From Fimbriiglobus ruber (GTDB lineage Bacteria > Planctomycetota > Planctomycetia > Gemmatales > Gemmataceae): a DNA stretch of 64,000 nucleotides. This document shows, one piece after another, positions 29,617 to 57,651 of the stretch. How positions within the stretch are numbered: position 1 is the stretch's first letter; the number at the start of each line of letters is the position of its first letter. The DNA is taken from contig NZ_NIDE01000014.1 in the NCBI RefSeq assembly GCF_002197845.1, positions 310,001-374,000 of the forward strand. The letters run 5' to 3'. The translations under genes were made by a program, and so were the position numbers. The notes beneath the pieces were generated by a model. It was not told the DNA's origin. It ran no database searches and worked only from the letters and a program-made list of their open reading frames with translations.

Positions 29617-29697
29617 ACGACATACTATTCATAACACGATATTGACATCGGAATCGCCGCCCGGCCTCGCGTGCGGAACGTAAACCCCGAGATCGCT

Positions 29698-32600: not shown

Positions 32601-33627
32601 CTTCTTAAAACGGTTTCCCGGCTCGGTCACGGGCGTCGCGCTCTCGCCGGACGGGCGGACCGCACTCACGTGCGGGTGGCCGGGGCCGGACAACGCCCGG
32701 CTATGGGACGCCGAAACCGGCCAACCGCTGGGGCCCCCACTGTCCGCAGCCCGAGATGCCACGGCCGCCGCGTTCTCCGCGGACGGCAGGCGGTTCGCCC
32801 TCGGTTCGTCGGCGAAAAGCGGGACAACCCTCTGGGACGCACCGACGCGCACAGTAATCGCGACGATCGCACACGATACGCCGGTCTTGTTCGTGCTCTT
32901 TTCGCCCGACAGCCGGCGACTCTTCGTCGCGACCGAGGGCAAACGTTCCGACATCGCCGACGCCGAAACCGGTCGGCCACTCAGTACGATCCGGCACGAC
33001 GCGTGGCTGTTGAATGGTGCCGCGTTTTCGCCCGACGGCTCACGCCTCGCCACCGCGCACGGGGGCGAAATCGCACGAGTCTGGGACGTACCGACGGGGG
33101 CGGCGGTCACACCGCCCCTGTTGCACGTCGGTGCCGTGACCACGGTGTCATTCTCACCGGACGGCCGCTGGGTTCTCGCGGGTAGTTCCGACCACACGGC
33201 CCGCCTATGGGACGCGGCGACCGGCATCCCGGTGTCGCCTCACTTCTTCCACGCCGACGGGGTTCAATTCGCGGGGTTCGCGGCAGACGGTCGGACGGCA
33301 CTGACGCGCGCCGCGCGCCCCGAAATCGTGAAATGGGATCTGACGCCGGACGAGAGACCGGTATCGGAAATCATCGAGTCGGTGCAGGCCCTGAGCGGCC
33401 ACCGGATCGACGACACGGGGGCGACCGTCGCCATTCTGCCGTCCGACTACGCCGCGGTGTGGTCGCGGGTTCGGGTGCGTGAATCGGAGCCGCCGGTTCG
33501 CCCCGAAACGATCTACAAATGGCGCGAGCGCGAGATCCGGGACAGCCTGACCGAGGGTAATCTGCGAGCGGTGCGATTCCACTGCTCGGAGATGTTCCGT
33601 GAGGTGGTGTCGGAAAAGGCGAAATAA
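29698..33627 (+). CDS. Transmembrane Hanks-type Ser/Thr kinase with WD40 propellers
   Basis: 1309 residues from the ATG at 29698, the position matching the paralogue's MPADSD start. Kinase domain about 82-380: GEGGMG loop at 91-96, VAIK lysine K113, HRD 204-206, DFG 227-229, APE-like SPEQ. The membrane helix is about 405-425, followed by an Ala/Glu-rich coiled coil (430-490). From about 540 to 1240 there are about 15 WD40-like blades, each with SPDGR or APDGR and ending in RLWD or RVWD, enough for two seven-bladed propellers. The kinase would be cytoplasmic and the propellers extracytoplasmic, probably binding a signal or partner. It is the intact member of the sigma-kinase cluster starting at 27459. 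Confidence 0.93.
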   Translation: MPANPDSVRDVFLSAVALPAPDRPGYLARACAGDPELRAAVDRLLAGDAAPAGLLQDNSPGLPRTGDYHPAPDDTGAVLAGRYKLLEQIGEGGMGTVWVAHQTEPVKRTVAIKLIKRGMDSHAVLARFEAERQALALMDHPNIAKVLDAGATPDGRPFFVMELVRGMPITKFCDTRRLTPRERLEMFVPVCHAVQHAHQKGVIHRDIKPGNVLVAVYDDRPVPKIIDFGVAKATTRPLTEQTLHTAFGTVIGTPQYMSPEQATFNNLDVDTRSDLYSLGVLLYELLTGSPPFTSAELQRAGIDEMLRVVREKEPPRPSEKLSTAAALPSLAASRSTEPKKLTGMLRSELDWVVMKALEKDRTRRYETANGFAADVLRYLSGEPVEAVPPSPVYRLRKLYRRNKAAARVMLLVFAILTAGIVGTTGGMFRAEQARRLADALHETAEEAKADAQTQAALARQEAANAQASATAARAESLKVQHLLALRHARDGVKLADEGRLGMGALAMAHALVVAPDAPGAAAAARVRLGLYRRYMPASYRTGLFLPQGYVGPALYSPDGTRILTAELSYRPALSARLWDAESGALLKELPHPAGVLSAAFAPDGRSVVTGCLDGVVRIWDVRSGLPLVTLPAAGGRVVAFSPDGRQLLTVSDDLPARLWDVGKWDAPRFQLQHPGQIWAAKFAPDGRHVLTAGWDRVPRLWDTSAGKEPFQLPPQSAAVLTVAFSPDGQMFATGCADGATSVWDAGTGRRVSKFPFHTGSVQAIAFSPDGNRIVTGSDDHTAHVWNPHTGERVFAPLVHGDLVWGVAFAPDGRRVATGCREGTARVWDARTGDPVSAWLQHADHLGSVSFARDGRRLLTGAADTRVWEVTGNEYRPAPATPVIPPGRPNMDFPDPTVLSADGRWAALGSRDGTVQVIEVASGKVLGKSLSLADQPLALALSADGRRVLIGCRSGLFAIWEPANGKPPVFLKRFPGSVTGVALSPDGRTALTCGWPGPDNARLWDAETGQPLGPPLSAARDATAAAFSADGRRFALGSSAKSGTTLWDAPTRTVIATIAHDTPVLFVLFSPDSRRLFVATEGKRSDIADAETGRPLSTIRHDAWLLNGAAFSPDGSRLATAHGGEIARVWDVPTGAAVTPPLLHVGAVTTVSFSPDGRWVLAGSSDHTARLWDAATGIPVSPHFFHADGVQFAGFAADGRTALTRAARPEIVKWDLTPDERPVSEIIESVQALSGHRIDDTGATVAILPSDYAAVWSRVRVRESEPPVRPETIYKWREREIRDSLTEGNLRAVRFHCSEMFREVVSEKAK

Positions 33628-35074: not shown

Positions 35075-38000
35075 ATGCTCCAGCGCGTCATCGGTTGGGC
35101 CGTCAACAATTCGCTCGTCGTTCTCCTCCTGGCTGCCCTCCTCGCGGGGTTCGGGGGGCTGGCGTTCGTCCGGGTCAACGTCGAGGCGTACCCCGACCCG
35201 GCCCCGGCGATTATCGAGGTGATCGCCCAATACCCGGGGGCGTCGGCCGAGGAGGTCGAGCGGCAAGTCACCATCCCCCTGGAAGTCACCCTCGCCGGGA
35301 TGCCGGGGCTGAAGACGACGCGGACGCGCTCCCTGTTCGGGCTCTCGCACCTCCGCTGCCAGTTCGAGTACGGCGTCCCGTACGAGAAGGCCCAGCAGGC
35401 CGTCATTAACCGGCTCCAGTTCACACAGGCCCTCCCCTCGGGCGTGATCCCGGTCCTGTCGCCGACCAGCCCGACGGGCGAGATCTATCGGTACACCCTG
35501 GCCGTCCCGAAGGACACGTCCGGGGCGGACCTATACACACTTAACGACATCAAGGCCCTCCAGGACTGGACCCTCGAGCGCGAGTTCCGGCGGGTCCCCC
35601 GCGTCATCGACGTGACCAGCGCGGGCGGGACCGTGAAGCGGTACGAGATCCGCCCGGACCCGGACCGGCTGCGGCGGTACGGGATCACCCTCGGCCAGTT
35701 CCAATCGGCCCTGACGAACGCCAACCAGAACACCGGCGGGGACGTACTCGACCAGGGCGGGAACGCCGTGAACGTCCGGGGGATCGGACTGTATGGGGGC
35801 GGACTCGACCCGATGCAGTCGAAGGACGTCCTCGGCGCGACCGACCCGAAGGCGGCCGCCGACTTCTTGCGGGCCGCGGACGACCGCCGCACCCACGCGA
35901 TCCGCGACACGGTCGTGACCACGATCAACAACACGCCGGTCCGGGTCGAAGACCTCGTCGAGGGCGGGCCGCTCACCTACGAGATGGAAATCGGCATGCG
36001 CGGGGTCGTGGTCGGGCACCAGACCCGACTCGGGCGGGTCAGCCTGAGTACCCCGAAAAAGGACGCCAGCGGAAACGTCCTGAAGGACGCGGACGGGAAC
36101 GTCGTCTGGAACGACGCGGAGGAAAAGGTCCAGTGCATCGTCCTGCTCCGCAAAGGGGAGGACTCGCTGCCGGCCCTCGCCGGGGTCCACGCCAAGGTGG
36201 ACGAGTTGAACGGCCCGGCCGGCGGCCGACTGCTCCCGGGCGTCAAGATCGAGCCGTACTACGACCGGACCGAACTCATCAACCTTACCACCGAGACGGT
36301 CCGCGAAAACCTCGTGGTCGGGATCGCGCTGGTGTCTCTCATCCTGCTCGTGTTCCTGGGGAACGTCCGGGTCGCCGTGATCGTGGCGATCAACATCCCA
36401 CTCGCCCTGCTGTTCGCGTTCGCCGTCCTGTACGTCCGCGGGCGGTCGGCCAACCTGCTATCGATCGGGGCGGTCGACTTCGGCATCATCGTCGACTCGT
36501 CCGTCATCATGGCCGAGAACATTTACCGCAAGCTGACGTCCGGCGAACACACGGACGAAAGCCTGAAGGACCGCATTTTGCACTCCAGCGGAGAGATCCA
36601 ACGGGCCTTACTGTTCTCGACCATGATTATGGTCTGCGCGTTCATCCCGCTGTTCGCCATGCAGGGGGCCGAGGGCCAACTCTTTGGGCCGATGGCCGAT
36701 ACCTACGCGTTCGCGCTCGCCGGCGGGTTGATGCTGGCCGTCGTCCTCACCCCGGTCTTGTGTCGCCTGTTCCTCGGGAACGTCAAGCCGACCCGGGACA
36801 ACTTCGTTGTTCGGACCATGAAGCGGCGGTACCTGCACAATCTCGACCGGTGTTTGCGGTTCCGCTGGGTTTTTCTTCTCCTCATGGGCGGGCTCATCGG
36901 GTTCACCGTGTGGTCGCTGAAGGATCTGGGCCGGGAGTTCATGCCGGAGTTGGAGGAAGGGAACCTGTGGGTCCGCGGGATGTACCCGCGGAACGCCTCG
37001 CTGGACAACGTGGCCGACGGCTCTCGGGCGGCCCGGGCGGTGATGCAGAAATTCCCCGAGGTCGACGCGGTCGCGAACCAGATGGGCCGCCCGGACGACG
37101 GGACCGACCCCGAGGGGTTCTACAAGTCCGAGTTCTTCGTCCCCCTCAAGGACCGCGGGCAGTGGCCGGCGGCCAAGCCGGCGACCGGGTGGTACAAGTG
37201 GTTCGGGGACAAGCGGCCGCGGACCAAGTACGAGCTGATTGCCGAAATGACGGCCGATCTCCGCGCCGCGACCCCGGGCGTGGATTGGAACTTCTCCCAA
37301 AATATCCGGGACAACGTGATGGAATCGATCTCGGGCGTGAAGGGGGACAACTCGATCAAGATCTACGGGCCGGATCTGAACGACCTCCAGCGGTTGGCCG
37401 AACTCGTGGAAGCCCGCCTGCGGGCGGTCCCGGGCGTCGAGGACGTCGGGGTGCTGGACGTGATGGGCCAGCCGAACCTGGAAATCCCCTGGGACCCGGA
37501 CAAGTGCAAACAGTGGGGGGTCAGTGTCGCCGACCTCCAGAACGTAATCCAGACCGCCGTCGGGGGGCAGGCCGCGACCCAGATGCGGGAAGGGGAGAAG
37601 ACCTTCGACATCACCTTCCGATGGCCTCAAGCCCTGCGGGACAACGAGCGGGCGATCCTGGACATCCCGGTCGACATCGTGAACCACCAGGTCTCCGGCG
37701 GCTACCAGGCGGGCACCGGCTCGACCCGGGCGACCGGCGCGGCGGTCGGGCTGACGACTTACGGGACCACGAACGCCCCGCCGTCGCTCTGGGGGAGTCA
37801 GTTCAACGCGGTCGGGAACTACCTGGGGGGAACCCCCCGGCGGCGCCTGGGCGACCTGGTCACGCCGTACAGCCCGGACGGCAAGCAGACGGCCGACGGG
37901 TCGTTCGTCCGGCCCGGGGCGTCGATGATCTTCCGCGAGCAGGGCCGGCGGATGATCGCGATCAAGTTCAGTGTCCGCGGCCGCGACCTGGCGGGCGCCG

Positions 38001-38653
38001 TCGAGGACGCGAAGAAGGCGACCGCCGACCTGATCGTCCTACCCTACCGGACCGAGTGGGGCGGGGAGTTCGAGCAGATGCAGGACTCCGAGGGCCGACT
38101 GGTCCTCATCATCCCGGTCGCCCTGGCGCTCATTTTCGTGCTGCTCTACCTGGCGTTCGGATCGCTCCTGGACGCCGTCGTGGTACTCTCGAACGTCCTC
38201 GCCTTGTCGGTCGGCGGGATCTGGGCCCTCCTCCTCACCGGGACCCACTTTAGCACATCGGCGGCGGTCGGGTTCGTCTCCCTGTTCGGGGTCGCGATCA
38301 TGGACGGGCTGTTGATGGTGTCGTACTTCAACCAGCTCCGCGCCGCGGGAATGCCGGTCCGGGAGGCCATCCTCCACGGGGCCGAGAAGCGGGTCCGGCC
38401 GGTCGTGATGACCGCGATGACGGCCATCCTCGGGCTGCTCCCGGCCGCACTGGCCCTACGGCCGGACCGAGACCTGACGGGACACTTCCGGCTGATCGAG
38501 CCGATCGGCGTCCAAACCCAGCGGCCGCTCGCGATCGTGGTCGTCGGCGGGATGATCACCACCCTTTTCCTGACCCGCTACCTGATGCCGGTCCTGTACA
38601 GCTTCTACGGCCACCGGGAGCCGCCGGCCGGGTCAGGAAGCATGGCTCACTAA
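35075..38653 (+). CDS. RND-type efflux permease (CusA/CzcA-like, HME group)
   Basis: 1192 residues. Typical RND order: first membrane helix (NNSLVVLLLAALLAGFGGLA), porter domain (EAYPDPAPAIIEVIAQYPGA, EEVERQVTIPLE), a central helix group with VDFGIIVDSSVIMAENIYRK (the TM4 proton-relay Asp region of heavy-metal efflux members), a second porter half and a closing helix group (FVSLFGVAIMDGLLMVSYFN). It is about 150 residues longer than usual CusA-like proteins; extra loops include a DASGNVLKDADGNVVW stretch and a Gly/Thr-rich stretch near residues 870-920. It would pump ions or small molecules across the envelope. No membrane-fusion or outer-membrane partner is adjacent, so the complex must be completed elsewhere or the substrate differs. 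Its last 21 bases overlap the convergent aldolase gene. Confidence 0.9.
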   Translation: MLQRVIGWAVNNSLVVLLLAALLAGFGGLAFVRVNVEAYPDPAPAIIEVIAQYPGASAEEVERQVTIPLEVTLAGMPGLKTTRTRSLFGLSHLRCQFEYGVPYEKAQQAVINRLQFTQALPSGVIPVLSPTSPTGEIYRYTLAVPKDTSGADLYTLNDIKALQDWTLEREFRRVPRVIDVTSAGGTVKRYEIRPDPDRLRRYGITLGQFQSALTNANQNTGGDVLDQGGNAVNVRGIGLYGGGLDPMQSKDVLGATDPKAAADFLRAADDRRTHAIRDTVVTTINNTPVRVEDLVEGGPLTYEMEIGMRGVVVGHQTRLGRVSLSTPKKDASGNVLKDADGNVVWNDAEEKVQCIVLLRKGEDSLPALAGVHAKVDELNGPAGGRLLPGVKIEPYYDRTELINLTTETVRENLVVGIALVSLILLVFLGNVRVAVIVAINIPLALLFAFAVLYVRGRSANLLSIGAVDFGIIVDSSVIMAENIYRKLTSGEHTDESLKDRILHSSGEIQRALLFSTMIMVCAFIPLFAMQGAEGQLFGPMADTYAFALAGGLMLAVVLTPVLCRLFLGNVKPTRDNFVVRTMKRRYLHNLDRCLRFRWVFLLLMGGLIGFTVWSLKDLGREFMPELEEGNLWVRGMYPRNASLDNVADGSRAARAVMQKFPEVDAVANQMGRPDDGTDPEGFYKSEFFVPLKDRGQWPAAKPATGWYKWFGDKRPRTKYELIAEMTADLRAATPGVDWNFSQNIRDNVMESISGVKGDNSIKIYGPDLNDLQRLAELVEARLRAVPGVEDVGVLDVMGQPNLEIPWDPDKCKQWGVSVADLQNVIQTAVGGQAATQMREGEKTFDITFRWPQALRDNERAILDIPVDIVNHQVSGGYQAGTGSTRATGAAVGLTTYGTTNAPPSLWGSQFNAVGNYLGGTPRRRLGDLVTPYSPDGKQTADGSFVRPGASMIFREQGRRMIAIKFSVRGRDLAGAVEDAKKATADLIVLPYRTEWGGEFEQMQDSEGRLVLIIPVALALIFVLLYLAFGSLLDAVVVLSNVLALSVGGIWALLLTGTHFSTSAAVGFVSLFGVAIMDGLLMVSYFNQLRAAGMPVREAILHGAEKRVRPVVMTAMTAILGLLPAALALRPDRDLTGHFRLIEPIGVQTQRPLAIVVVGGMITTLFLTRYLMPVLYSFYGHREPPAGSGSMAH

Positions 38654-39565
38654 CGGCCGGCTCCACTCGAAGAAGCCGATGCGTTCGAGACCAGCCCGCA
38701 GGCGAGCATGCTGGTCGGGAGCCAGACTCGTATTGGGTAGACGGGGCGGCCCGACGTCGACGCCCAGGAAGCCCATCACGGCCTTGGCTGCTCCCATGTA
38801 GCCGAACCCGGCCAGGAGGTCGATGACCTCGACCGAGCGGTATTGTTCGGCTCGGGCGGTGGTCAGGTCGCCCTTGGCGAAGGCGGCCATCATCCGCAGG
38901 TAGACCGGGGCCGCGAAGTTGTAGCTGCTGCCGACGCCGCCTTGTCCACCGACGGCCAGCGCCGCGAGCAAGTATTCGTCCATCCCCCACGGCATGTCGA
39001 ACCGGCCGCCGTGGCTGCGGAGGCAGCGCTGGTAGGCCATCAGGTCGGGGTTCGAGAATTTGATGCCCGTCAGCGTGGGAATGCGCTCGGCCGCCGCGGA
39101 CAGGAAATCGGGCATGGAGAGCTGCACGCCGGTCATCGGCGGGATGTCGTAGTAGTAAAACGGCGTGCCCGGCGCCGCGGCCGCGACGTCGGCGCAGCAG
39201 GCGACGAGTACGTCCAGGGATTTCGGCTTGAAGTAACTCGGCGCGAGCGCCGCAATCGCAGCCACTCCCAACGACTGGCTATGGGCGGCCAGCGCCCGGG
39301 CGTCTGCGAGGCAGTTCGAGCCGACGTGAACGACCACGCGGAGGTCCGTCCCGCGGGCGACTTCGCACCACCGGCGGGCGAGGGCGAGCCGTTCCTCGAC
39401 GGTCAACGAGTGGCTCTCGCCGGTGCTGCCGCAGATGAAGACGGTATTCACGCCGCTGCCAAGCAGGTGGCCGGCTTGCTTCTCGACGGCCGTCAGGTTT
39501 AATTGGCCGTCCGCATCGAACGGCGTATGGGTGGCGGCGACGAGGCCGTGAAGCTTGATCGTCAT
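38633..39565 (-). CDS. nanA: N-acetylneuraminate lyase-like class I aldolase (DHDPS family)
   Basis: 310 residues from the ATG at 39565, which overlaps the stop of the transporter gene (ATGA). DHDPS/NAL barrel features: GSTGES at 46-51 (substrate carboxylate loop), the tyrosine cluster YYYDIP at 137-142 and the Schiff-base lysine K169 in GIKFS. YYY-x-IP with TG following is more like neuraminate lyase than DHDPS. In this operon the likely reaction is sialic acid to N-acetylmannosamine plus pyruvate. It is the last gene of the operon; its 3' end overlaps the convergent RND gene by 21 bases. Sequence alone cannot exclude another 2-keto-3-deoxy acid substrate; the neighbours make sialic acid most likely. 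Confidence 0.85.
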   Translation of the reverse strand: MTIKLHGLVAATHTPFDADGQLNLTAVEKQAGHLLGSGVNTVFICGSTGESHSLTVEERLALARRWCEVARGTDLRVVVHVGSNCLADARALAAHSQSLGVAAIAALAPSYFKPKSLDVLVACCADVAAAAPGTPFYYYDIPPMTGVQLSMPDFLSAAAERIPTLTGIKFSNPDLMAYQRCLRSHGGRFDMPWGMDEYLLAALAVGGQGGVGSSYNFAAPVYLRMMAAFAKGDLTTARAEQYRSVEVIDLLAGFGYMGAAKAVMGFLGVDVGPPRLPNTSLAPDQHARLRAGLERIGFFEWSRPLVSHAS

Positions 39566-40812
39566 TTGGGTGGGCCCTCGGCGGACAGGTCTCGGTTCGG
39601 TCGGATCAGTAACACCAGGAATACGGAAATCACCGCGGTACTCGCGAACGCGCCGAAGATCACGTTGAGCGGAACGTGCCGGTCGCGGAGTAAGCCGAAG
39701 CCCCAGTCCGCGAACCCGCCGCAACTAATGCTGACCAGATTCATGACGCCGTAGCCCGTGGCGCGCAGTTCGGGTCGGACGATCTGGGAAAGAATCGGCA
39801 TGTTGTTGCAATCGAAGAAGCCCCAGCCCAACCCGAACAAGATCAGGAACGCGATGGCGACCACGAGCATGTCGGCGTTGCCGACGCCGAAGAGGGCGGG
39901 GATCAGCATGACCATGCCCGCGGCGCCGGCGTAGATGCGGCCCCGGATGGTGCGCCGCGTCAGGCGGTCGGCGACCCACCCGCCGGCGAACGCCCCGACC
40001 AGCGCGGCGAGGTTCACGAACAAGGTGGCCGAGACGCCCGCCCGGCCCTGGCCGATCTGGAACTGCTCCTTGAGGATGGCCGGCATCCAGTCGCGGACGA
40101 CCCACCCGGCGAGGGCCGGCAGGGTGAAGTAAAGCACCAGCAGGATGAACGAGGCGTTCGCGAGGAGTTCCTTCGCGGCCGTGCCCGGGCCGGGCTTGAC
40201 CGCAACTACGCTCGCCGCGTTGCGGGGCGGGTCTCTCAGGAACGCGAGCAACGGCAGCGCATAGAGGACGCCCGCGAAGCCGACGACGTCGAACGCGGTC
40301 CGCCAGCCCAGGTCGGGGGCGTCCGCGACGTACCCGCTAAAGCCACCGGCGATCACGCCGCAGTAGATCGCCGTCTGGTGGACACCGACCGCCCGCGAGC
40401 GGGTTCGTCCGGCGTGGTAGTCCGCGATCAGGGCAAGGGCTGCGGGAATGTAAAACGCCTCGCTGATCCCCATGAGCGTCCGGGTCCAGAGGAGGCCGTC
40501 GTAAGTCTCCGCGTGCCCGGTGGCCCACGTCACCGCCGACCAGACGAACAGGCTCGCGCAAATCGTGTACCGCCGGCCGAAGCGGTCGGCGATGTACCCG
40601 CCGACCGGGCTGAGGACCGCGTACACCCACTTGAACTGGCCGAGCATGTACCCCCAATTGGCCTCCGACCCGAGGCCGGGGATGTCCGCCGTCACGGAGA
40701 ACTTCATCGAGGCGAGCATCTGCCGGTCGAGGTAGTTCAACAGCGCGACCGGCCAGAGCAGGGCGACGACGAGCCACGCGGTACGGGCGAGTGTCGGAAC
40801 GACGGTTGTCAC
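39562..40812 (-). CDS. MFS transporter, probable sialic acid importer
   Basis: 416 residues with 12 predicted membrane helices and no signal peptide. Classical MFS signatures are present: DRFGRR in the loop after helix 2 (GGYIADRFGRRYTICASLFV) and a repeat of it in the second half (GGWVADRLTRRTIRG). NYLDRQ in helix 1 is typical of the anion:cation/sugar-acid branch of the superfamily that includes sugar acid carriers. Start ATG at 40812 lies 16 bases after the mutarotase gene stop, and its stop overlaps the aldolase start. The sialic acid substrate is inferred from the operon. Confidence 0.85.
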   Translation of the reverse strand: MTTVVPTLARTAWLVVALLWPVALLNYLDRQMLASMKFSVTADIPGLGSEANWGYMLGQFKWVYAVLSPVGGYIADRFGRRYTICASLFVWSAVTWATGHAETYDGLLWTRTLMGISEAFYIPAALALIADYHAGRTRSRAVGVHQTAIYCGVIAGGFSGYVADAPDLGWRTAFDVVGFAGVLYALPLLAFLRDPPRNAASVVAVKPGPGTAAKELLANASFILLVLYFTLPALAGWVVRDWMPAILKEQFQIGQGRAGVSATLFVNLAALVGAFAGGWVADRLTRRTIRGRIYAGAAGMVMLIPALFGVGNADMLVVAIAFLILFGLGWGFFDCNNMPILSQIVRPELRATGYGVMNLVSISCGGFADWGFGLLRDRHVPLNVIFGAFASTAVISVFLVLLIRPNRDLSAEGPPK

Positions 40813-40828
40813 GGGGCGACTCCCAGGC

Positions 40829-41854
40829 TCACTTCACGGGATGGTCAACCGACCACACTTCCGGCGAGCGGACACCAGGCCGCGCTTCGCCGCTCGGGAT
40901 CACCCACCGGCCGCCCCACTGGACGAACGGAACAGTTACCCGGGCGACCGACAGATCACCCGCCTCGATCCACTTCCCGCCCGCGCCGTCGAAGCGAAGA
41001 ATCGTTTTTCGGAAGCCAGGATGTCGATCCGGCGGGCGACCGACGTTGGTGCCGTCGTCGCCGCCGAGGACGTAAAAGCCCGTCGCGTCGGCCGGACACG
41101 GCGACGGGGCGGCCGCGAGCGGGCATGGCAGGTCGGCGGCACGTTGCCAGCCGCGGTTGGCGTCGTGACGGTAGACATCTTTCCGATAGCGACGGTCGAT
41201 TTTCCCACCCGGCCCGGCGACAAGATCCACACCGCCCGCCACCCAGAACGCCCCGTCGAACGCCGCAGCGACGGCGAGCATGCGGCCACCGCCCGGGCAC
41301 GGGGCGATCTCGCTCCAGGCTGGTTTTGTAGCTGCCAGGTCGAGCCGTAGGGTCGTTTTCGAGGCGTCCGCCGCGTCAGGCTTGTCCAACCCACCTGAAA
41401 TGTACAAGACTTCCCCGACGATCGCCCCGCAGGCGTTGGCGACCGGACACGGCAACGGTGGGAGGGGCGTGGTGAGGAGTCGCTCGTCCTTCCAGTCCAG
41501 CCGGAAAACGTCGGCATAATGTCGGTCCGCGTCACTGCCGCCGACACAGATTACACCTGTGCCGTGAGTCACAGAGACGCCGTAGCCCAACGGCCGCGGG
41601 AGTTTGCCGACAACCTTCCAGGTTCCGTCCGGCCGGTCCAATACGTAGACGTCGGCGTACCAGACCTTCCGGCCGCCGTCCCACGGCTTCTTGCCCGGGA
41701 AGTTCGCCCCACCCGCGACGAGTAACGCGCCGCGGCTGACGCCCGCGAACGGGCCGGCAAAGCCTTCCTTGTCCGGGAGAAGTGGCAATTGCTTCCAGCT
41801 CCCGGCTGCTTGACTGGCGGCGAGCGCGACGAGCATTCCGGTCAGTGTCAGCAT
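40829..41854 (-). CDS. Exported kelch-repeat mutarotase (NanM/YjhT-like)
   Basis: 341 residues from the ATG at 41854, seven bases inside the 3' end of the epimerase gene. A signal peptide (MLTLTGMLVALAASQAAG) leads a six-bladed kelch propeller: LLVAGGANFPGKKPWDGGRK, VWYADVYVLD, ICVGGSDADRHYADVFRLDW, LYISGGLDKPDAAD and FYVLGGDDGTN. The GANFP..PW.GG.KVWY signature is that of cyclically permuted mutarotases related to E. coli NanM, which speeds interconversion of sialic acid anomers in the periplasm. The export signal and its place between epimerase and transporter fit this role. Other kelch enzymes cannot be fully ruled out. Confidence 0.85.
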   Translation of the reverse strand: MLTLTGMLVALAASQAAGSWKQLPLLPDKEGFAGPFAGVSRGALLVAGGANFPGKKPWDGGRKVWYADVYVLDRPDGTWKVVGKLPRPLGYGVSVTHGTGVICVGGSDADRHYADVFRLDWKDERLLTTPLPPLPCPVANACGAIVGEVLYISGGLDKPDAADASKTTLRLDLAATKPAWSEIAPCPGGGRMLAVAAAFDGAFWVAGGVDLVAGPGGKIDRRYRKDVYRHDANRGWQRAADLPCPLAAAPSPCPADATGFYVLGGDDGTNVGRPPDRHPGFRKTILRFDGAGGKWIEAGDLSVARVTVPFVQWGGRWVIPSGEARPGVRSPEVWSVDHPVK

Positions 41855-43071
41855 GGCGGCCCTGCCGGCTCGGAGTGTTGATCGAGCAACCGCCAGCAGT
41901 ACCAGAGCATGCGGGGGAGGTGGAACGGCCCCTTCCACATGTTCCCTTTCAGCGTGACCGAGACGCGGCCGTCCCGGTGGAGGTAGCCGTACCACTCGCC
42001 GAACTCGCGGTCCGCGAAATGGCGGAAGCTCCAGTCGTGAACCTGCCGGTGCCAGCGGGCGTACCTGGCGTCGCCCGTCAGGCTCCAGGCGAGTTGAGTC
42101 GCGATGATCGCCTCGCAGTGGGGCCACCAGAACTTCATATCGTGCCAGTATTCCTGCACGGGTAAGCCGAGCAGGTCGCGGAAGTAGTAGAGGCCGCCGT
42201 ACTCCTCGTCCCAGCCGCGATCCCACATCCAGTCGAGCATCGTCAGGCCGAGTTGGATCAGACGGCGGTCCCGTCTGAACTTCCCCTCGTGCATGATGAA
42301 CCAGGCCGCTTCCAGCGTGTGGCCCGGGTTTAGCAACCGGCCGTCGAAGTGGTCGAGGATCTCGCCGTTCGGGCCGGCCGTCTCCAAAACGACCTGAAGT
42401 TCCGGCCGGACGAACAGCCGCTCGATGCGGTCGATGAACCAGTCGATCCACTCCGTACAGGTCCGGCCGCGGGCGGTCACGTCGCCGAGGTTTTCGCGCA
42501 ACTCTTGGGCCGTCGCCAGGCCGATCATGAACGACCCAATGCCGACCGTCGGGCGCGTTTCGGGGGAGACCTTCGGCGGAATCTTACCGGGCGCGAAGGA
42601 GTATTGCAGGTACGTCTCGAAATGCCGGACGGCGTCACCGGCCGCCCGGCCGTCCGCGGCCGCCCGCGCGTAAGCGGCGTTAGCGATACTCGCGAACGAC
42701 TCGCTGTAGACGTACCGCCGCATCCGCAACGGGCGGCCGTCCCGGGTCACGGTGAAGTACATCTTCCCGTTCGAGGCGGTCCCGTGCCGGCGCAAGAATT
42801 CGATACCCGTTTTCGCCGCGTCGAGCCACCGCGGCTCGCGACCGGCGGTGTTGTAGAGCGTGGCAAACGTCCACGCCCCGCGGCCCTGGAACCAGACGGA
42901 CTTGTCCGTATCGATGACGCGGCCGTCCCGGGCGAGGGCCGTCAGGTAGCCCCCGTGTTGGGAATCCAGGCCGTGCCGGAGCCAGAACGGGATCACGTCC
43001 CCGAGCAGCGTTTCGCGGTAGACGGCGGCGAGCGCGGTCCGGCCGTCAGGTGTCGTCAGGTCTGGGGTCAT
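41848..43071 (-). CDS. N-acylglucosamine 2-epimerase (AGE/RnBP family)
   Basis: 407 residues from the ATG at 43071, overlapping the esterase stop (ATGA). It is an alpha/alpha-barrel AGE protein of usual length: WFQGRGAWTFATLYN near the N-terminus, NPGHTLEAAWFIMHEG and YWHDMKFWWPHCEAI holding the active-site histidines, and LKGNMWKGPFHLPRM near the end. It has no signal peptide, so it is cytoplasmic. The family interconverts N-acetylmannosamine and N-acetylglucosamine. In this operon it would take ManNAc from the lyase to GlcNAc, replacing the NanK/NanE route of E. coli. Its 3' end overlaps the mutarotase start. Confidence 0.9.
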   Translation of the reverse strand: MTPDLTTPDGRTALAAVYRETLLGDVIPFWLRHGLDSQHGGYLTALARDGRVIDTDKSVWFQGRGAWTFATLYNTAGREPRWLDAAKTGIEFLRRHGTASNGKMYFTVTRDGRPLRMRRYVYSESFASIANAAYARAAADGRAAGDAVRHFETYLQYSFAPGKIPPKVSPETRPTVGIGSFMIGLATAQELRENLGDVTARGRTCTEWIDWFIDRIERLFVRPELQVVLETAGPNGEILDHFDGRLLNPGHTLEAAWFIMHEGKFRRDRRLIQLGLTMLDWMWDRGWDEEYGGLYYFRDLLGLPVQEYWHDMKFWWPHCEAIIATQLAWSLTGDARYARWHRQVHDWSFRHFADREFGEWYGYLHRDGRVSVTLKGNMWKGPFHLPRMLWYCWRLLDQHSEPAGPPC

Positions 43072-44606
43072 TTTGGGGCCGCCGTCGTGACGAACGTCGA
43101 CGCGGGGAGCCCGGCCCCGTTCGTCAGGTTCCCGCGCGAGTACGGTTGCCACCCGTACCGGGCGGCGGTGGGGGCGTCCAAACCGCCGACCGAGAGCGAC
43201 ACGGTATCGCCCGCGAGGGCGACTTCCGCGGGGCGAAAAGCCCCGTCCGGACCCGCGACCTCGAACCCGGTAGCGGGCTCGTCCGCCCGCGTCTTCAGAC
43301 CGCCGTCCGCGTGATCGAAGGTCACGACGAGTGTCGACCGCTCGCGCCGGGCGGATTTGACGAGCGGGCCACTGAACGGGATTTTCTTCCCGTACACTTG
43401 CGCCGCCGCGCAGAGAGTTAGGCGGTGCCCCACGTCCCTTTTGTTGCGGGGGTGAACGTCGGTCGGGTGCCCCAGGTCACTGGTCACGACCATACCGGCG
43501 TTCGGAATGTCCGCGAGTGCCCGCCGCTGGGCGTCCCGAAATTCCGGCCAGTAGTGCGACTTGTACCCGCCGCCGGTGCCGACGCTGGAGAGCTGGCAAA
43601 ACAGGAACGGGAAGTCGCCCAGACCCCACTGCCGCCGCCAGTCGGCCACGAGTATGCGGAACAGGCGGTCGTGTTGGCGGACGCGGTCGGCGTCCAGCGC
43701 GTTGCTTTCCCCCTGATACCAGAGAACGCCCCGGACCGGGAACGGGATCAGGCGGGCGACCCCGGCGTCCCACAGGAACCCCGGCTTGAACGGGTGGTTC
43801 GGCCCGGTCGCGTCCGCCCCCCCGCCCCCCGGCGCCGGACCCAAGTTCTCCAGCGCCCGCTGCCGACACCAGCCGGCGAGTGCCTTGTTTTCCAGCCAGT
43901 TGCCGGCCAACAGCGGGCGCAAGGTGTCGTCCCCGGCCAGCGCGCCCGGGCGAACCCAAGCCTCCGTCGGACTCCCCCCGACGGCCAGATGGATGACGCC
44001 GACGGGCACGCCGACGGTCTTCTGGACTTCTTTGGCGAAGTAATACCCGATTGCGGAAAATTCGCCGGCGGAGGCGGGCGAACACGGGCGCCACGCCCCG
44101 CGAAAATAGCCGCCCGGCGTGAGGCGACTCAGCACGTCGCGGTCGAACGGCTTCGCGAAAAAATTCTGCCCGGCGTAGGCGAGGTTCAGCAGTCGGACGG
44201 CGGGCAGGTCGGCCCGCGGCAGTTCCGCCGCCGCGTGGGCCTCTTTCGCCAGCGGCCATTCCATGTTCGACTGACCGGCCGCCACCCAGACCTCCCCGAC
44301 CACCACGTCGCGCAAACGGACCGGGCGGCCCGCGGTGATCGTCAAATCGCGCCCCTCGGCCGCCGCCGCGAGCGGGTCGAGTTTCACGGCCCAATTCCCT
44401 TTGGCGTCGGACCGGCCCACTTTCCGTTGCCCGGCGAACTCGACCGCGACCTCTTCCCCCGGGGCGGCCGTGCCCCAGACGGGTACCGGGACGCTCCTCT
44501 GGAGGACCATCGCGTCTTGGAAGACCGCTGCGGGCTCCGGCCGGCCGAAACCGGGAGCGGAATGGGCGAGCAATCCCACCAAGGCCAAGAAGAAGAGGCG
44601 GCCCAC
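43068..44606 (-). CDS. Exported sialate O-acetylesterase (SGNH/SASA)
   Basis: 512 residues from a GTG at 44606, chosen because AGGAGA lies 9 bases upstream and the product starts with a signal peptide (VGRLFFLALVGLLAHSAPGF); it begins two bases after the sialidase stop. SGNH features: WVAAGQSNMEW with nucleophile S113, GVIHLAVGGSPTEAW (Gly block), VLWYQGESNA (Asn block) and DLGHPTDVHPRNK with the catalytic Asp-x2-His. The domain order (beta-sandwich, SASA, C-terminal beta-sandwich) is that of bacterial sialate O-acetylesterases, which remove O-acetyl groups so that sialidases and lyases can act. Its position right after the sialidase supports that substrate. Confidence 0.9.
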   Translation of the reverse strand: MGRLFFLALVGLLAHSAPGFGRPEPAAVFQDAMVLQRSVPVPVWGTAAPGEEVAVEFAGQRKVGRSDAKGNWAVKLDPLAAAAEGRDLTITAGRPVRLRDVVVGEVWVAAGQSNMEWPLAKEAHAAAELPRADLPAVRLLNLAYAGQNFFAKPFDRDVLSRLTPGGYFRGAWRPCSPASAGEFSAIGYYFAKEVQKTVGVPVGVIHLAVGGSPTEAWVRPGALAGDDTLRPLLAGNWLENKALAGWCRQRALENLGPAPGGGGADATGPNHPFKPGFLWDAGVARLIPFPVRGVLWYQGESNALDADRVRQHDRLFRILVADWRRQWGLGDFPFLFCQLSSVGTGGGYKSHYWPEFRDAQRRALADIPNAGMVVTSDLGHPTDVHPRNKRDVGHRLTLCAAAQVYGKKIPFSGPLVKSARRERSTLVVTFDHADGGLKTRADEPATGFEVAGPDGAFRPAEVALAGDTVSLSVGGLDAPTAARYGWQPYSRGNLTNGAGLPASTFVTTAAPK

Positions 44607-44608
44607 CG

Positions 44609-45790
44609 TTATTTCTCCTGCTTCGCGGCCGGCCCGACGGCCCCCGGCGCGACCTTCCGGGCCGCTTCGTCCAGTTCCTTCAGCGTGAAGCGCTCGCTCA
44701 GAATGTACGCGGGCTCCTTGGCCGTCCAGTGGCCGTAGGTCGTGACGACGAACGTGCCGTCCGGCAGCTGCTCCACGCCCGGGTAGGCACAGTCCCAGCG
44801 GTCGTAGTTCTTCTTGAAGCGGACGCGGTATTGGCCGTCGCGGTTTTTGACGATGTCGTCGTAGGTGCCGACCCACCCGACCCAGTCGCCTTCCGTCGGG
44901 CTCTTAACGCCCTTGCGGGGGATGTCACGGAAGGAGATGAACAAGCGGCCGTCCGGCCCGTACTTAGCCACGTGCCGGTCGCCGGTGAGCGAGCCCGGGA
45001 GCTCCCGCGGCTCGGTCCACGTCTTGCCCTCGTCGTCCGAGAAGATCACGTGCGAATTCTTCACCCGCTTGTTCTCGCGCAGGAGCACGGCGATCTGCTT
45101 GCCGTCCGGCGACCGCACGGCCCCCGGCTCGCAGAGGTGTACCTGATTCGAGACGAACACGGCTTCCGGCTTCGACCACGTCAGGCCGCCGTCGGCCGAG
45201 AACGTTTTGTAAAGCGTGAACGTGCCGGCCGCTTTGCCGCCCTTGGCGATGTACCGACCGTCGTCGTGGAACAGGGCCAGGTAATGGCCGGCCGTCTTCA
45301 ACTCGATCACCGAGGCCATCGCCACGATGCCGCCCCAGTCGCCGACCGTTTTCAGCTCGGTCCACGTCGCCCCGTCGTCCTCGCTGCTGGCGAGCCGGAC
45401 CGGGTAGAGCCCGCTGAAGACGATGAGCCGCTTCTTACCGGCCGCGTCCACGACCCGGTGGATCGTCGGCGTTTCCAGGGAGGTCTCCCACGACTTCGGC
45501 GTCGGCAGCCGGGCCGACCAGGTTTTGCCACCGTCCTCGCTTTTCTTGTAAACAATGGCTCCCTTCCCGTGCCCCTTGGGGTAGACGCAGAGAATCGTCT
45601 TGCCGTCTTCGAGCAGCACCGTGGTCGGGTGCCCGAGGTATTGGCCCGGTTGCCGGTCGACAATGACCTGACGCTCGGTCTGGTCGTTCAAGTCGACCGT
45701 GGGCAGGGAAAACGCTGGCGTCGGGTCGGCCCCCGCGGCCGGGAGCGCGAGCGTCAGGACGAGCAGAAGACTCCAACGGTAACCGCGCAT
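44609..45790 (-). CDS. Exported sialidase (GH33-like six-bladed propeller)
   Basis: 393 residues from the ATG at 45790 with GAGG upstream. Signal peptide MRGYRWSLLLVLTLALPAAG. Four Asp-box repeats (S-x-D-x-G-x-T-W) are visible: SEDGGKTWS, SEDDGATWT, SADGGLTWS and SDDEGKTWT, placing it in the sialidase superfamily. The mature protein is a bare propeller without lectin or carbohydrate-binding modules. It would release sialic acid from glycans outside the cell or in the periplasm. Arg-triad and Tyr/Glu catalytic residues cannot be assigned safely by eye; a BNR-repeat protein with another glycan substrate remains possible, but the esterase, lyase and epimerase genes strongly favour sialidase. Confidence 0.85.
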   Translation of the reverse strand: MRGYRWSLLLVLTLALPAAGADPTPAFSLPTVDLNDQTERQVIVDRQPGQYLGHPTTVLLEDGKTILCVYPKGHGKGAIVYKKSEDGGKTWSARLPTPKSWETSLETPTIHRVVDAAGKKRLIVFSGLYPVRLASSEDDGATWTELKTVGDWGGIVAMASVIELKTAGHYLALFHDDGRYIAKGGKAAGTFTLYKTFSADGGLTWSKPEAVFVSNQVHLCEPGAVRSPDGKQIAVLLRENKRVKNSHVIFSDDEGKTWTEPRELPGSLTGDRHVAKYGPDGRLFISFRDIPRKGVKSPTEGDWVGWVGTYDDIVKNRDGQYRVRFKKNYDRWDCAYPGVEQLPDGTFVVTTYGHWTAKEPAYILSERFTLKELDEAARKVAPGAVGPAAKQEK

Positions 45791-45820
45791 GTCGAATCCT
45801 CGCTGGGTGAGAGAAAAGAA

Positions 45821-46525
45821 TCAGTCGCCTTGGCCGGCCGGCGTGTTCGAGGAAAAGTGGCCCAGAACCGTGTCCCGCCCCGAGCGGATATGGGCGGCCA
45901 TCCACGCGCGGGCTTTGTCCGCGTCGCGGTTCGTCAAGATGTCCAAAAAGGCTTCGTGATTGAGCAGGGTCGAGTCGGCAAGGACTCGGGTGAGTAGCCG
46001 GGGGACCGTGCGGTGGGCGGAGAACACCTGGGCGATCACGCGGATTTCGTTGACCACCTTGACGAGCCAGCGGTTCCGCGCCGCCGCCACGACCCGCGTG
46101 TGGAACTGCTCCTCGCATTCGAGCCAGCGGTCGAACTGGGTCCGCGTCGCGTGCTTGCCGGCCGGGATGGCGGTCGCGATTTGCCGGAAGCGGTCGCAGA
46201 CGCCCCGCAGTTCGGTCACGAGGTGTTCGGTGGCAAACCGGGCCGCCTCGGCAGCGGCGAGGACTTCCAGGGCTTCGCGCACGTCGTACAACTCGCCCAG
46301 TTCGTTCGGGTCCGGCGACCGCACGAACGCCCCGGCGCTGGGCGTCGACTCCAGCAACCCCTCGCTCACGAGCCGGCTGATGGCCTCGCGGACGGGAATC
46401 GTGCTCGTCCCGAGTTCGGCAGCCACCGTCCGGTTGACCAGCCTGGTCCCCGGCCGCAGATCGCCCGATCGCAGCCGGCGGTGGAGCTGGTCGTACACGT
46501 GCTGCGAAAGTGTTTTCGGGTCCAT
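45821..46525 (-). CDS. GntR/FadR-type regulator, probable NanR
   Basis: 234 residues. The N-terminal winged helix-turn-helix (LSQHVYDQLHRRLRSGDLRP, then GTSTIPVREAISRLVSEGLL) and the all-helical FCD ligand domain (ELYDVREALEVLAAAEAARF onward, with EEQFHTRVVAAARN supplying metal or ligand His) define the FadR subgroup, to which E. coli NanR belongs. It is the first gene of the sialic acid operon, 30 bases before the sialidase start. Three GATATA/GGTATA-like repeats lie about 30-55 bases upstream of its ATG, so it probably represses itself and the operon until a sialic acid-derived ligand binds. Confidence 0.88.
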   Translation of the reverse strand: MDPKTLSQHVYDQLHRRLRSGDLRPGTRLVNRTVAAELGTSTIPVREAISRLVSEGLLESTPSAGAFVRSPDPNELGELYDVREALEVLAAAEAARFATEHLVTELRGVCDRFRQIATAIPAGKHATRTQFDRWLECEEQFHTRVVAAARNRWLVKVVNEIRVIAQVFSAHRTVPRLLTRVLADSTLLNHEAFLDILTNRDADKARAWMAAHIRSGRDTVLGHFSSNTPAGQGD

Positions 46526-46554
46526 GCGGGCTCCGGGCGGAGTCGGCGGCGGCG

Positions 46555-46580
46555 TGATATATCATGGTATATCAGGATAT
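46555..46580 (-). promoter_or_regulatory. NanR-like operator (three direct hexamer repeats)
   Basis: Hexamers GATATA (46556-46561), GGTATA (46566-46571) and GGATAT (46575-46580) are spaced 9-10 bases apart; TGATATATCA at 46555-46564 is also a perfect palindrome. E. coli NanR is known to bind direct GGTATA repeats. The site lies 30 bases upstream of the regulator start codon, where it could cover the operon promoter. Confidence 0.65.
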
Positions 46581-46910
46581 TTTGTCCCGTCAAGGCGTCG
46601 TAACTCTCATTATCGGGGCCGGAATGGCACCGAGAATTGAGGCGACCCGCGACTCGTACCCGTGGGGTGACTGGCGGGTTCCGTTCCGGCGAAAGTTTGG
46701 CCCGGTCCGAAACCCCTTTTTCGGCTCTCGACGTTTTCGTCGGGGGAAAACGTATGTCCCGGGTCTGGTTCGATAAAATGCTTGCGTTAGACAGCTTCCT
46801 GCTTCGGAAGTTCAGCTCCGGCCCGTAAAATTAGTACCAATGTTTTCGCCTCCCCGTGACTCGGTCCTCTTAAATTCCGCGCTCGGTCGTTACACAGGAC
46901 GTCCACCTCG
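46581..46910. other. Intergenic between the sialic acid operon and the split hybrid kinase
   Basis: 330 bases without a supported gene; divergent promoter space. No repeat or RNA structure was recognised. Confidence 0.35.
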
Positions 46911-46996: not shown

Positions 46997-48361
46997 CCGG
47001 AACAATTACTTCACCCTTTGGCCGCACCCGAAACTCCTTGGCGTGGCCGGATGGTATAGTTCCAACTCGGACAGGTCTTATGCCGTCGCAAGCGCAACTT
47101 CCTCATCTCGTGATCCGTGACCTTCAGGCCCCTCTCATAGTTTCCCCGCAACAACACGGCTTTCACCTGCAAGCCTGTTTCGGTTCTCGTGTCCTGAATA
47201 TAGCCCAACAAGATCAACCACGAACGCAAGGGCTTGCCGGCCCAGTTGATGCTGATAAAGCTGAACAGCCGATGCTCAATCGGGTTCCACTTGGAGCCAC
47301 CGCGGGGGTAGTGGCACACCGTCACCTCCAGGTTGAAGGCGTCAGCCAGCCGTTCCTGCAACTGACGCTTCCACATCCGAGGCCGACAGCCATTACTGCC
47401 ACCCGAGTCCGCCAGGATCAGGAGTTTGGTAGCGTCCGGGAAACGACGGCGACCGTGGCTCTTCCACCACGAGACAATCGCATCGACCGCAAACTCCGGC
47501 GTGTCGGCCGATTCGCCCACGTACACGTAACCGCGGTCGTGTTGTACCAGGTAGATGCCATACGGGGTGGCCCGGCCCTCGGCGTCACTGAGGAAGTCAT
47601 AAGCGTTGACCTCGTCCGCCTCGTGGCACCAGGTCTGCCCATCCTGCTGGAAGTTGCCGATCAACTCTTTTTTCTTGGTATCCACGCTGATGACCGGCCT
47701 GCCCGCTTTCAGGAACCGCCGCTTCTGGTGGGCGATGTAGCGGAACTGACGATCCCGATCGGGGTGCGGTGGGCCGGTAAACCGTTTCCGATTCGCCTTC
47801 AACGAGTACTTGAGTTTGTGGAGCAAACGCCGGACGGTCTTGGGGTCGATGGCATGGCCTCGTTGGGCCAGCAGTTGGCCCAGTCGCTTCAGGCTCAGAC
47901 GCACCCACCGCTGTTTCGTCATCGGGTCGCCGCCGGTGTCATCGACCAGCAGGGCTACCAGGTCTCGCTCCAGGACCGGATCTTTTTTTCCAAGGGCGGG
48001 CGGCCCGCTCCAGGGCGGCGGACCCGTCCCGGCGGGAGGTTGGCAAAAGCCGACCCTAACTCTTGGCGTCCCCGGCGAATGGTCTGGACGTGGAGGCCTG
48101 TGATGGAGGATACCAGGCGGTCACCGCCGTGGCCGATGCGCTGGGCTTCCCAGGCCGCCAGCCAGCGTCGCTGTTGCTCGTTGAGCCGACTGAGGAGCAA
48201 GTTGAGTTGTCGGTGGACCTCCTTGTTGGGATGGTCTGTCGCCTGGAGGCAATCAGGACATCGACATTGGTGAAGCGGGGTAGGGTGCATGATGTGGTCT
48301 CCAGCTGACGCAACAAGCCATGCAAGTGATTGTAGGGACAAGGGTGAAGTAATTGTTCCGG
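46997..48361 (-). mobile_element. ISAzo13-family insertion sequence
   Basis: Perfect 22-bp terminal inverted repeats (CCGGAACAATTACTTCACCC plus TT at 46997-47018, complement at 48340-48361) enclose one transposase gene pair on the minus strand. No target duplication is evident. It separates 28 N-terminal codons from the rest of a hybrid histidine kinase gene. Confidence 0.88.
47011..48290 (-). CDS. ISAzo13 transposase made by probable -1 frameshifting
   Basis: Two overlapping frames. ORF A (ATG at 48290 to a TAG at 47955, 111 codons) holds the helix-turn-helix part: LNEQQRRWLAAWEAQRIGHG, ITGLHVQTIRRGRQEL, GRVRRPGAGRPPLEKK. ORF B, in the -1 frame, carries on as DPVLERDLVALLVDDTGGDP, MTKQRWVRLSLKRLGQLL and the nuclease domain (VISVDTKKKELIGNF, ILADSGGSNGCR, HYPRGGSKWNPIEHRL with candidate D, D, E), ending WNYTIRP. 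At the junction, codons GAA AAA AAG contain the slippery heptamer A-AAA-AAG (47988-47982), and slipping back one base there gives exactly ...LEKKDPVLE. The fused product would be about 425 residues, the family's usual size. A chance indel in the A-run is the alternative. Confidence 0.85.
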
Positions 48362-48368
48362 CCGCCCC

Positions 48369-57569: not shown

Positions 57570-57651
57570 AGGTGGTTAGCACTCCGAATTGTCGTGAAAG
57601 TAGTGGGTCCGGAACGCTCTTATAGGCACTCAATATTCCCGAGGTATTCCG

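What the first reader, a model, noticed from the sequence alone, without database searches (positions are those of the whole stretch)
38633..46580. Compact seven-gene sialic acid scavenging operon in a planctomycete
All seven genes are on the minus strand with overlaps or gaps of 30 bases or less: regulator, exported sialidase, exported sialate O-acetylesterase, AGE epimerase, exported kelch mutarotase, MFS carrier and neuraminate lyase-like aldolase. Each step from glycan to GlcNAc has a candidate protein with the right location. The AGE route replaces NanK/NanE. nan-type genes are known in Planctomycetes; the complete single-transcript arrangement with esterase, mutarotase and regulator is worth documenting.
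Basis: partly seen in the sequence, partly recalled or inferred. Interest (0 to 1): 0.85.

Follow-up and report, generated by a model that had tools for sequence, protein, structure and literature searches.

The report
Sialic acid operon lacking standard sialidase
A planctomycete carries one compact gene set for taking up and breaking down sialic acid by the Bacteroides-style route, but its supposed sialidase is a related and highly conserved protein whose active site has been rebuilt, so what it cuts is an open and testable question.

Summary
In detail: seven minus-strand genes, 38633-46525, with gaps of 30, 2, -4, -7, 16 and -4 bases. A sialic-acid operon is well supported. The lyase carries the N-acetylneuraminate lyase signatures and its nearest solved relatives are lyases. 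The epimerase is AGE-type. The kelch protein is a cyclically permuted NanM relative. The genome lacks NanE but has NagB, NagA-like and ROK genes. The same genes cluster in several other Gemmatales.

One key assignment fails. The "exported sialidase" is not a canonical GH33. It keeps the Tyr/Glu pair and one Arg but lacks the RIP arginine and the acid/base Asp, and no canonical GH33 was found in the genome. It belongs to a 60-70% identical family spread over several phyla. In two relatives of this operon it is fused behind a true GH33. It lies beside NAL/AGE genes at several separate points of its tree. It predicts as a six-bladed sialidase-like propeller (VIA-align Z about 29).

The regulator has a tandem 10-bp operator over its promoter, unique in the genome; the layout recurs upstream of six related regulators and resembles the repeat operator of E. 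coli NanR.

Verdict: a new variant of a known kind; the noncanonical propeller is the interesting part.

The parts
46555..46574 (-). Predicted operator: TGATATACCA TGATATATCA, two tandem 10-bp repeats, also an inverted repeat TGATATA-N6-TATATCA
   Evidence: none expected in shuffles of the window; same layout upstream of six other related regulators; only site in the 12.36-Mb genome with up to 3 mismatches
46564..46593 (-). Promoter-like site TTGACG-N18-TACCAT overlapping the operator
   Evidence: 2 found in 9.1 kb, 0.7 expected; sequence read
45821..46525 (-). GntR/FCD-family regulator, NanR-like
   Evidence: GntR 64 bits, FCD 73 bits; NanR model 44 bits, cut-off 260 not met; relatives 45-48% identical beside the same genes
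44609..45790 (-). Exported six-bladed BNR propeller, noncanonical GH33-clan protein (the 'sialidase')
   Evidence: BNR_2 64 bits; AF2 pLDDT 89.8, pTM 0.87; VIA-align Z 28-30 to GH33 sialidases and 32 to 5hx0; alignments A1, A2
43068..44606 (-). Exported SASA-type carbohydrate O-acetylesterase (GTG start)
   Evidence: PF03629 72 bits; GQSN, GGSP, WYQGE and DVHP motifs
41848..43071 (-). N-acylglucosamine 2-epimerase (AGE, NanE-II type), cytoplasmic
   Evidence: PF07221 150 bits; 8bry AGE 500 bits, E 3.4e-149
40829..41854 (-). Exported kelch propeller, cyclically permuted NanM-type mutarotase
   Evidence: NANM PF24996 134 bits over cut-off 45; TIGR03548 126 bits below cut-off 243; permuted match to 2uvk YjhT
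39562..40812 (-). MFS carrier of the anion:cation symporter / D-galactonate type (GTG start), probable sialate carrier
   Evidence: MFS_1 140.6 bits; TIGR00893 135 bits; mfs-nal pairs in relatives mostly at 66-75% identity
38633..39565 (-). N-acetylneuraminate lyase
   Evidence: 5afd and 6h4e lyases 253 and 244 bits, 6arh lyase 200, best DHDPS 107; GSTGE, YYDIPPMTG, GIK, GMDE, GGVGS

Best explanation
This is a sialic-acid-inducible catabolic operon of the Bacteroides (NanL / AGE) type. A GntR/FCD regulator sits on tandem 10-bp repeats over its own promoter and most likely represses until sialic acid (or a derivative) arrives. Outside the cytoplasmic membrane, the SASA esterase removes O-acetyl groups, the BNR propeller acts on a sialoside or sialic-acid variant, and the permuted NanM-type propeller speeds anomer conversion. 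The MFS protein imports the acid, the lyase splits it to pyruvate and ManNAc, and AGE turns ManNAc into GlcNAc. GlcNAc is then phosphorylated and processed by ROK kinase, NagA-like and NagB proteins encoded elsewhere. The propeller stands where relatives carry, or fuse it to, a canonical GH33; I think it is a GH33-clan glycosidase with a remodelled active site. Shown here: gene order, families, motifs, the operator sequence and its recurrence, no GH33 or NanE found, conservation. Inferred: transport, induction, all activities, and above all the propeller's reaction.
For: Families and motifs. Conserved clusters in relatives. NanE absent; NagB 258 bits above its cut-off 237; NagA-like 208 bits just below its cut-off 226; five ROK matches. 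Operator unique in the genome and its layout shared. Propeller: GH33 fusions in L074 and L077, and in reverse order in L061; NAL within 10 kb in 11 of 80 loci, where chance would give about 0.3 by my rough estimate; at least 4 separate label changes forced on the tree; GH33-like fold. Among 62 NAL-positive Gemmatales genomes, GH33 is present in 6 of 18 with the propeller and 35 of 44 without it, p = 0.0009.
Against: No activity or induction data. Most propeller homologues (about 60 of 80 loci) lie in unrelated surroundings. The GH33-versus-propeller exclusion is between genera only; within genera it vanishes. GH93 arabinanases match the fold nearly as well (Z 28). NCBIfam cut-offs for NAL, AGE, NanT and NanR are not reached.
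Confidence: 0.7

Rival explanations
1. One reading: the BNR protein is an ordinary retaining GH33 sialidase and the operon is a complete standard scavenging system.
For: BNR_2 domain and four Asp boxes; sialidase fold; Tyr336, Glu221 and Arg238 align with the GH33 nucleophile Tyr, its Glu and one triad Arg (read; Tyr also).
Against: The RIP arginine aligns with Gly53 (LGHP), the loop that bears the acid/base Asp is about 6 residues shorter and holds invariant His74, and the third arginine position is not Arg. Relatives carry a separate canonical GH33 fused to it.
Confidence: 0.1
2. The propeller is not a sialidase: it is a binding protein or a glycosidase for another sugar, and this strain lives on free sialic acid or on acid released by neighbours.
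For: Two of three triad arginines and the catalytic Asp are gone. Most homologues stand alone in varied contexts. GH93 is nearly as close in fold. A BNR protein of Akkermansia, Amuc_0623, showed no sialidase activity (PMC10067855; not known to be the same family).
Against: Repeated separate association with NAL/AGE/GH33 and fusions in both orders. About 80 invariant columns in 64 sequences, including several His, Arg, Asp and Trp, fit catalysis better than simple binding.
Confidence: 0.35
3. The whole operon serves another nonulosonic or 2-keto-3-deoxy acid (Kdn, legionaminate, KDG-type) rather than Neu5Ac.
For: Carrier nearest to the D-galactonate subfamily; remodelled propeller; DHDPS-family aldolases are versatile.
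Against: The aldolase has the GxDE sugar-binding block and matches true lyases better than KDG aldolases (blocks described in PMC4016182). AGE needs an N-acyl hexosamine, the expected product from Neu5Ac, and a NanM-type protein is present.
Confidence: 0.1

Closest known systems
Bacteroides fragilis NanL / NanE-II (AGE) / RokA pathway
   Same: Lyase plus AGE-type epimerase acting on unphosphorylated ManNAc, kinase after the epimerase, NagA/NagB afterwards (PMC10017367)
   Different: Here with a noncanonical BNR propeller, GntR/FCD regulator and an MFS of the D-galactonate type in one unit; kinase outside the operon
E. coli nan / nanCMS system
   Same: NanM-type mutarotase and O-acetylesterase in one unit; GntR-family NanR on a tandem-repeat operator (PMC10017367, PMC8012715)
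   Different: NanE not found in this genome and no NanK/NanE in the operon, no NanC in the operon, mutarotase cyclically permuted, repeats are 10-bp TGATATAYCA rather than GGTATA, carrier not of the NanT subfamily
GH33 exo-sialidases
   Same: Six-bladed propeller with Asp boxes; Tyr, Glu and one Arg of the active site aligned
   Different: First and third Arg and the acid/base Asp missing; invariant His54 and His74 nearby instead
GH181 (Akkermansia Amuc_1547)
   Same: Precedent for a GH33-related propeller sialidase with an altered catalytic set (PMC10067855)
   Different: GH181 replaces the Tyr by Gln and keeps two Arg; the present family keeps the Tyr and shows no CBM-like domain in the window's protein
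Published planctomycete nan clusters (e.g. Thermoguttaceae SKZ5.6)
   Same: Planctomycete with sialidases, NanT and NanA (PMC11929135); NanA in three planctomycete genera (PMC2693436)
   Different: The published cluster is described with NanK; here AGE stands in the operon instead of NanE/NanK and no GH33 was found

Membership tests
N-acetylneuraminate lyase (NAL) | PF00701 barrel with Schiff-base Lys, Tyr, GS[ST]GE carboxylate block and GxDE sugar block | tested here: met
   blocks as in PMC4016182
N-acetylneuraminate lyase (NAL) | Nearest solved relatives are lyases rather than DHDPS or KDG aldolases | tested here: met
   253, 244, 200 bits for NALs; best DHDPS 107
N-acetylneuraminate lyase (NAL) | NCBIfam NAL equivalog cut-offs (281 and 382 bits) | tested here: not met
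   141 and 119 bits; PRK04147 NAL is still the best-scoring model
N-acetylneuraminate lyase (NAL) | Lyase activity on Neu5Ac | not testable with these tools
   Needs purified protein
AGE / NanE-II epimerase | PF07221 and closest solved relative an AGE | tested here: met
   (8bry 500 bits; cellobiose epimerases at most about 80)
AGE / NanE-II epimerase | NCBIfam equivalog cut-off 600 bits | tested here: not met
   367 bits, far above any other model
GH33 exo-sialidase | Six-bladed propeller with Asp boxes | tested here: met
GH33 exo-sialidase | Tyr nucleophile with Glu partner | tested here: met
   Y336 and E221 align with Y346 and E240 of the L077 GH33 (hhalign aligns the Tyr but shifts the Glu by two columns); by alignment only
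GH33 exo-sialidase | Arginine triad including the RIP arginine | tested here: not met
   LGHP in place of (F/Y/I)RIP; R238 matches the second Arg; no Arg at the third position
GH33 exo-sialidase | Acid/base Asp in the first blade | tested here: not met
   Loop shortened; invariant His74
GH181 | Gln in place of the catalytic Tyr, CBM-like domain | tested here: not met
   Tyr336 present; single 393-aa propeller
GH156 | GH156 sequence family | not tested
   No GH156 model or sequence was searched, so a GH156 elsewhere in the genome is not excluded
NanM-type mutarotase | PF24996 (NANM) above cut-off | tested here: met
   134 bits, cut-off 45
Permuted mutarotase TIGR03548 | Permuted order relative to NanM | tested here: met
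   query 19-125 matches 230-344 and query 131-211 matches 3-76 of 2uvk
Permuted mutarotase TIGR03548 | Subfamily cut-off 243 bits | tested here: not met
   125.9 bits
SASA esterase | PF03629 with SGNH-type motifs | tested here: met
SASA esterase | Acts on O-acetyl sialic acid | not testable with these tools
   The Pfam family covers other carbohydrate esterases too
NanT (sialate:H+ symporter) | TIGR00891 cut-off 553 bits | tested here: not met
   53.7 bits
NanR (E. coli type) | GntR + FCD domains | tested here: met
NanR (E. coli type) | NCBIfam NanR cut-off 260 bits | tested here: not met
   44 bits
NanR (E. coli type) | Tandem-repeat operator at the promoter | tested here: met
   same kind of layout, different repeat sequence and length; binding itself not tested

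The most novel reading that the evidence does not exclude
The BNR propeller founds a new glycoside hydrolase family of clan GH-E. It would be a widespread, deeply conserved sialic-acid enzyme with Tyr/Glu but without the full arginine triad and acid/base Asp, acting on a sialoside, an anhydro form or a related nonulosonate, and replacing or complementing GH33 in environmental bacteria of several phyla.
Probability: 0.35. Interest if true: 0.75.

Novelty: new variant of a known kind. Interest (0 to 1): 0.5.

Why it matters
It extends AGE-type sialic acid catabolism to a large-genome planctomycete and to other Gemmatales. It also shows that 'sialidase' labels drawn from BNR domains can hide a distinct and very conserved protein family with a changed active site. 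That family occurs in at least 80 loci over several phyla and repeatedly sits with sialic acid genes, so testing one member would annotate many genomes. The tandem 10-bp operator gives a directly testable regulator-DNA pair parallel to NanR.

Tried and rejected
Circular permutation of the BNR propeller against GH33: some HMM matches pair blade 3 with GH33 blade 1, but the structural matches run collinearly from end to end (model 40-376 to 52-404 of 1eus) and the six blades line up in order, so I kept the collinear reading. A MAFFT alignment of three sequences misplaced the first blade and was not used. Exclusion of GH33 and propeller as a within-genus rule: not supported (in which G404, a NAL-negative genome, was included by mistake; one search is the clean count). 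A recurring non-sialic neighbour of the propeller: none found. Remnant of a GH33 between regulator and propeller in the window: the gap is 30 bases, so there is none. GH177 papers gave no residue-level information that I used. No member of the propeller family was found among solved structures by sequence; the best matches are weak GH33 hits.
Full report
Observation. The seven genes are there as described, on the minus strand between 38633 and 46525, with gaps of 30, 2, -4, -7, 16 and -4 bases. The window lies in a 12.36-Mb genome. Its family is the one that holds a contig deposited as Gemmata sp. (G422 contig 106 and L128 have the same length and match), so it is most likely a Gemmataceae member.

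The core pathway. The aldolase is a true N-acetylneuraminate lyase by sequence. The three best solved relatives are lyases at 253, 244 and 200 bits, against 107 for the best dihydrodipicolinate synthase. It has the GSTGE, YxxIP, GIK and GMDE blocks that correspond to the lyase active-site blocks named in PMC4016182. The epimerase matches the AGE structure 8bry at 500 bits. The kelch protein passes the Pfam NANM cut-off and is cyclically permuted relative to E. coli YjhT/NanM, though it falls short of the TIGR03548 cut-off. In the genome NanE was not found, one NagB is above cut-off, a NagA-like protein is just below cut-off and there are five ROK matches. This is the route known from Bacteroides fragilis (PMC10017367). 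NCBIfam cut-offs for lyase, epimerase, NanT and NanR are not met, as may be expected for distant members, so these names stay predictions.

The sialidase problem. The BNR protein is not a canonical GH33. In an alignment of 19 orthologues the RIP arginine is replaced by an LGHP-type stretch (Gly53 and His54 invariant), the loop that carries the acid/base aspartate in GH33 is shorter and carries invariant His74, and no arginine aligns with the third of the triad. Tyr336, Glu221 and Arg238 are kept. In two relatives with this operon (L074, L077) the same gene is longer: a canonical GH33 domain comes first and this module second. In L061 the order is reversed, and in L080 the module follows a SASA-like domain. 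No canonical GH33 was found in the window's genome, which is 97% complete, although 57 of 101 Gemmatales genomes have one.

What the module is. A scan of species genomes returned at least 80 loci at 58-77% identity from Planctomycetota, Verrucomicrobiota, Acidobacteriota, Bacteroidales and others. About 80 columns are invariant in 64 sequences. The AlphaFold2 model is confident (pLDDT 89.8, pTM 0.87). It matches 5hx0, a protein of unknown function, at Z 32, GH33 sialidases at Z 28-30, and GH93 arabinanases at Z 28. Fold alone therefore does not give the substrate.

Genomic evidence for a sialic acid role. Eleven of the 80 loci have a NAL (39% identity or more) within 10 kb, one more has AGE only, and seven more have GH33 without NAL or AGE; about 0.3 NAL neighbours would be expected by chance, from one NAL in 6 Mb (my estimate). 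On a tree of 87 modules the NAL/AGE-linked ones need 10 changes, at least 4 of them forced by well-supported branches, so the link arose or was kept several times. The window's module groups with those of the two fused operons (support 82). Among 62 NAL-positive Gemmatales genomes, GH33 is present in 6 of 18 that have the module and 35 of 44 that lack it (p = 0.0009). The pattern is between genera only, so shared ancestry may account for part of it. Against a sialic role, about 60 loci show no sialic acid neighbours, but no other recurring partner either.

Regulation. A sigma-70-like TTGACG-N18-TACCAT site is overlapped by TGATATACCATGATATATCA at 46555-46574: two tandem decamers that also form an inverted repeat. 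No such site appears in shuffles of the window, and it is the only one in the genome with up to three mismatches. Six other regulators of this group have tandem 10-bp repeats at the same place (four with TGATCGAACA-type repeats, one TGATTGATCA/TGATCGATCA, one TGCTATAACA/TGCTATAGCA); two do not. E. coli NanR, also of the GntR family, binds a (GGTATA)3 repeat and is released by Neu5Ac (PMC8012715). The parallel in architecture supports local repression and induction by sialic acid or a derivative; it is not a binding test.

Relation to what is known. NanA in Planctomycetes was reported in 2009 (PMC2693436), and a nan cluster in a mucin-grown Thermoguttaceae isolate in 2025 (PMC11929135). GH181 shows that GH33-related propellers can be active sialidases with altered catalytic residues, while another BNR protein of the same bacterium, Amuc_0623, was inactive in that study (PMC10067855). 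GH156 sialidases are common in the PVC group (PMC6254351) and were not searched here.

Conclusion. The operon is real and by all sequence evidence sialic-acid-directed. The claim of a complete pathway with an ordinary sialidase is not supported. The interest lies in the conserved noncanonical propeller and in the tandem-decamer operator.

Noticed in passing
47011-48596: ISAzo13-type transposase (PF07592, 364 bits) just upstream of the operon. Its N-terminal part seems to lie in a separate frame at 47955-48596, so the element looks split.
   Followed up: partly
38633-38653: The end of the lyase gene overlaps by 21 bases the end of a convergent RND efflux gene (35075-38653, ACR_tran 664 bits).
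   Followed up: no
L110 3716-5358: In genome G436 an intact GH33 is followed by short remnants of the module (88 aa) and of the SASA gene (76 aa), which looks like an internal deletion.
   Followed up: no
L061 7417-9768: One 784-aa open frame (not trimmed to a start codon) joins a module-like propeller (43% identity) and a canonical GH33 in the reverse order, next to NAL and a second GH33.
   Followed up: partly
L080 9875-11812: A SASA-like domain is fused in front of the module, and another BNR-type frame overlaps the same stretch in a second reading frame list.
   Followed up: no
L001 1435-2364: The only other BNR_2 protein found in the genome (254 bits). It also lacks the RIP arginine (PSCHAS), so it too is not a canonical GH33.
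   Followed up: partly
L074 11711-12691 and L077 12692-13597: In two relatives a prepilin-like protein and, in L077, a further small protein sit between the regulator and the GH33-module gene.
   Followed up: no
53940-60531: Two very large adjacent proteins rich in propeller and FG-GAP repeats.
   Followed up: no
29671-33627: Ser/Thr kinase with a WD40 propeller, 1318 aa.
   Followed up: no
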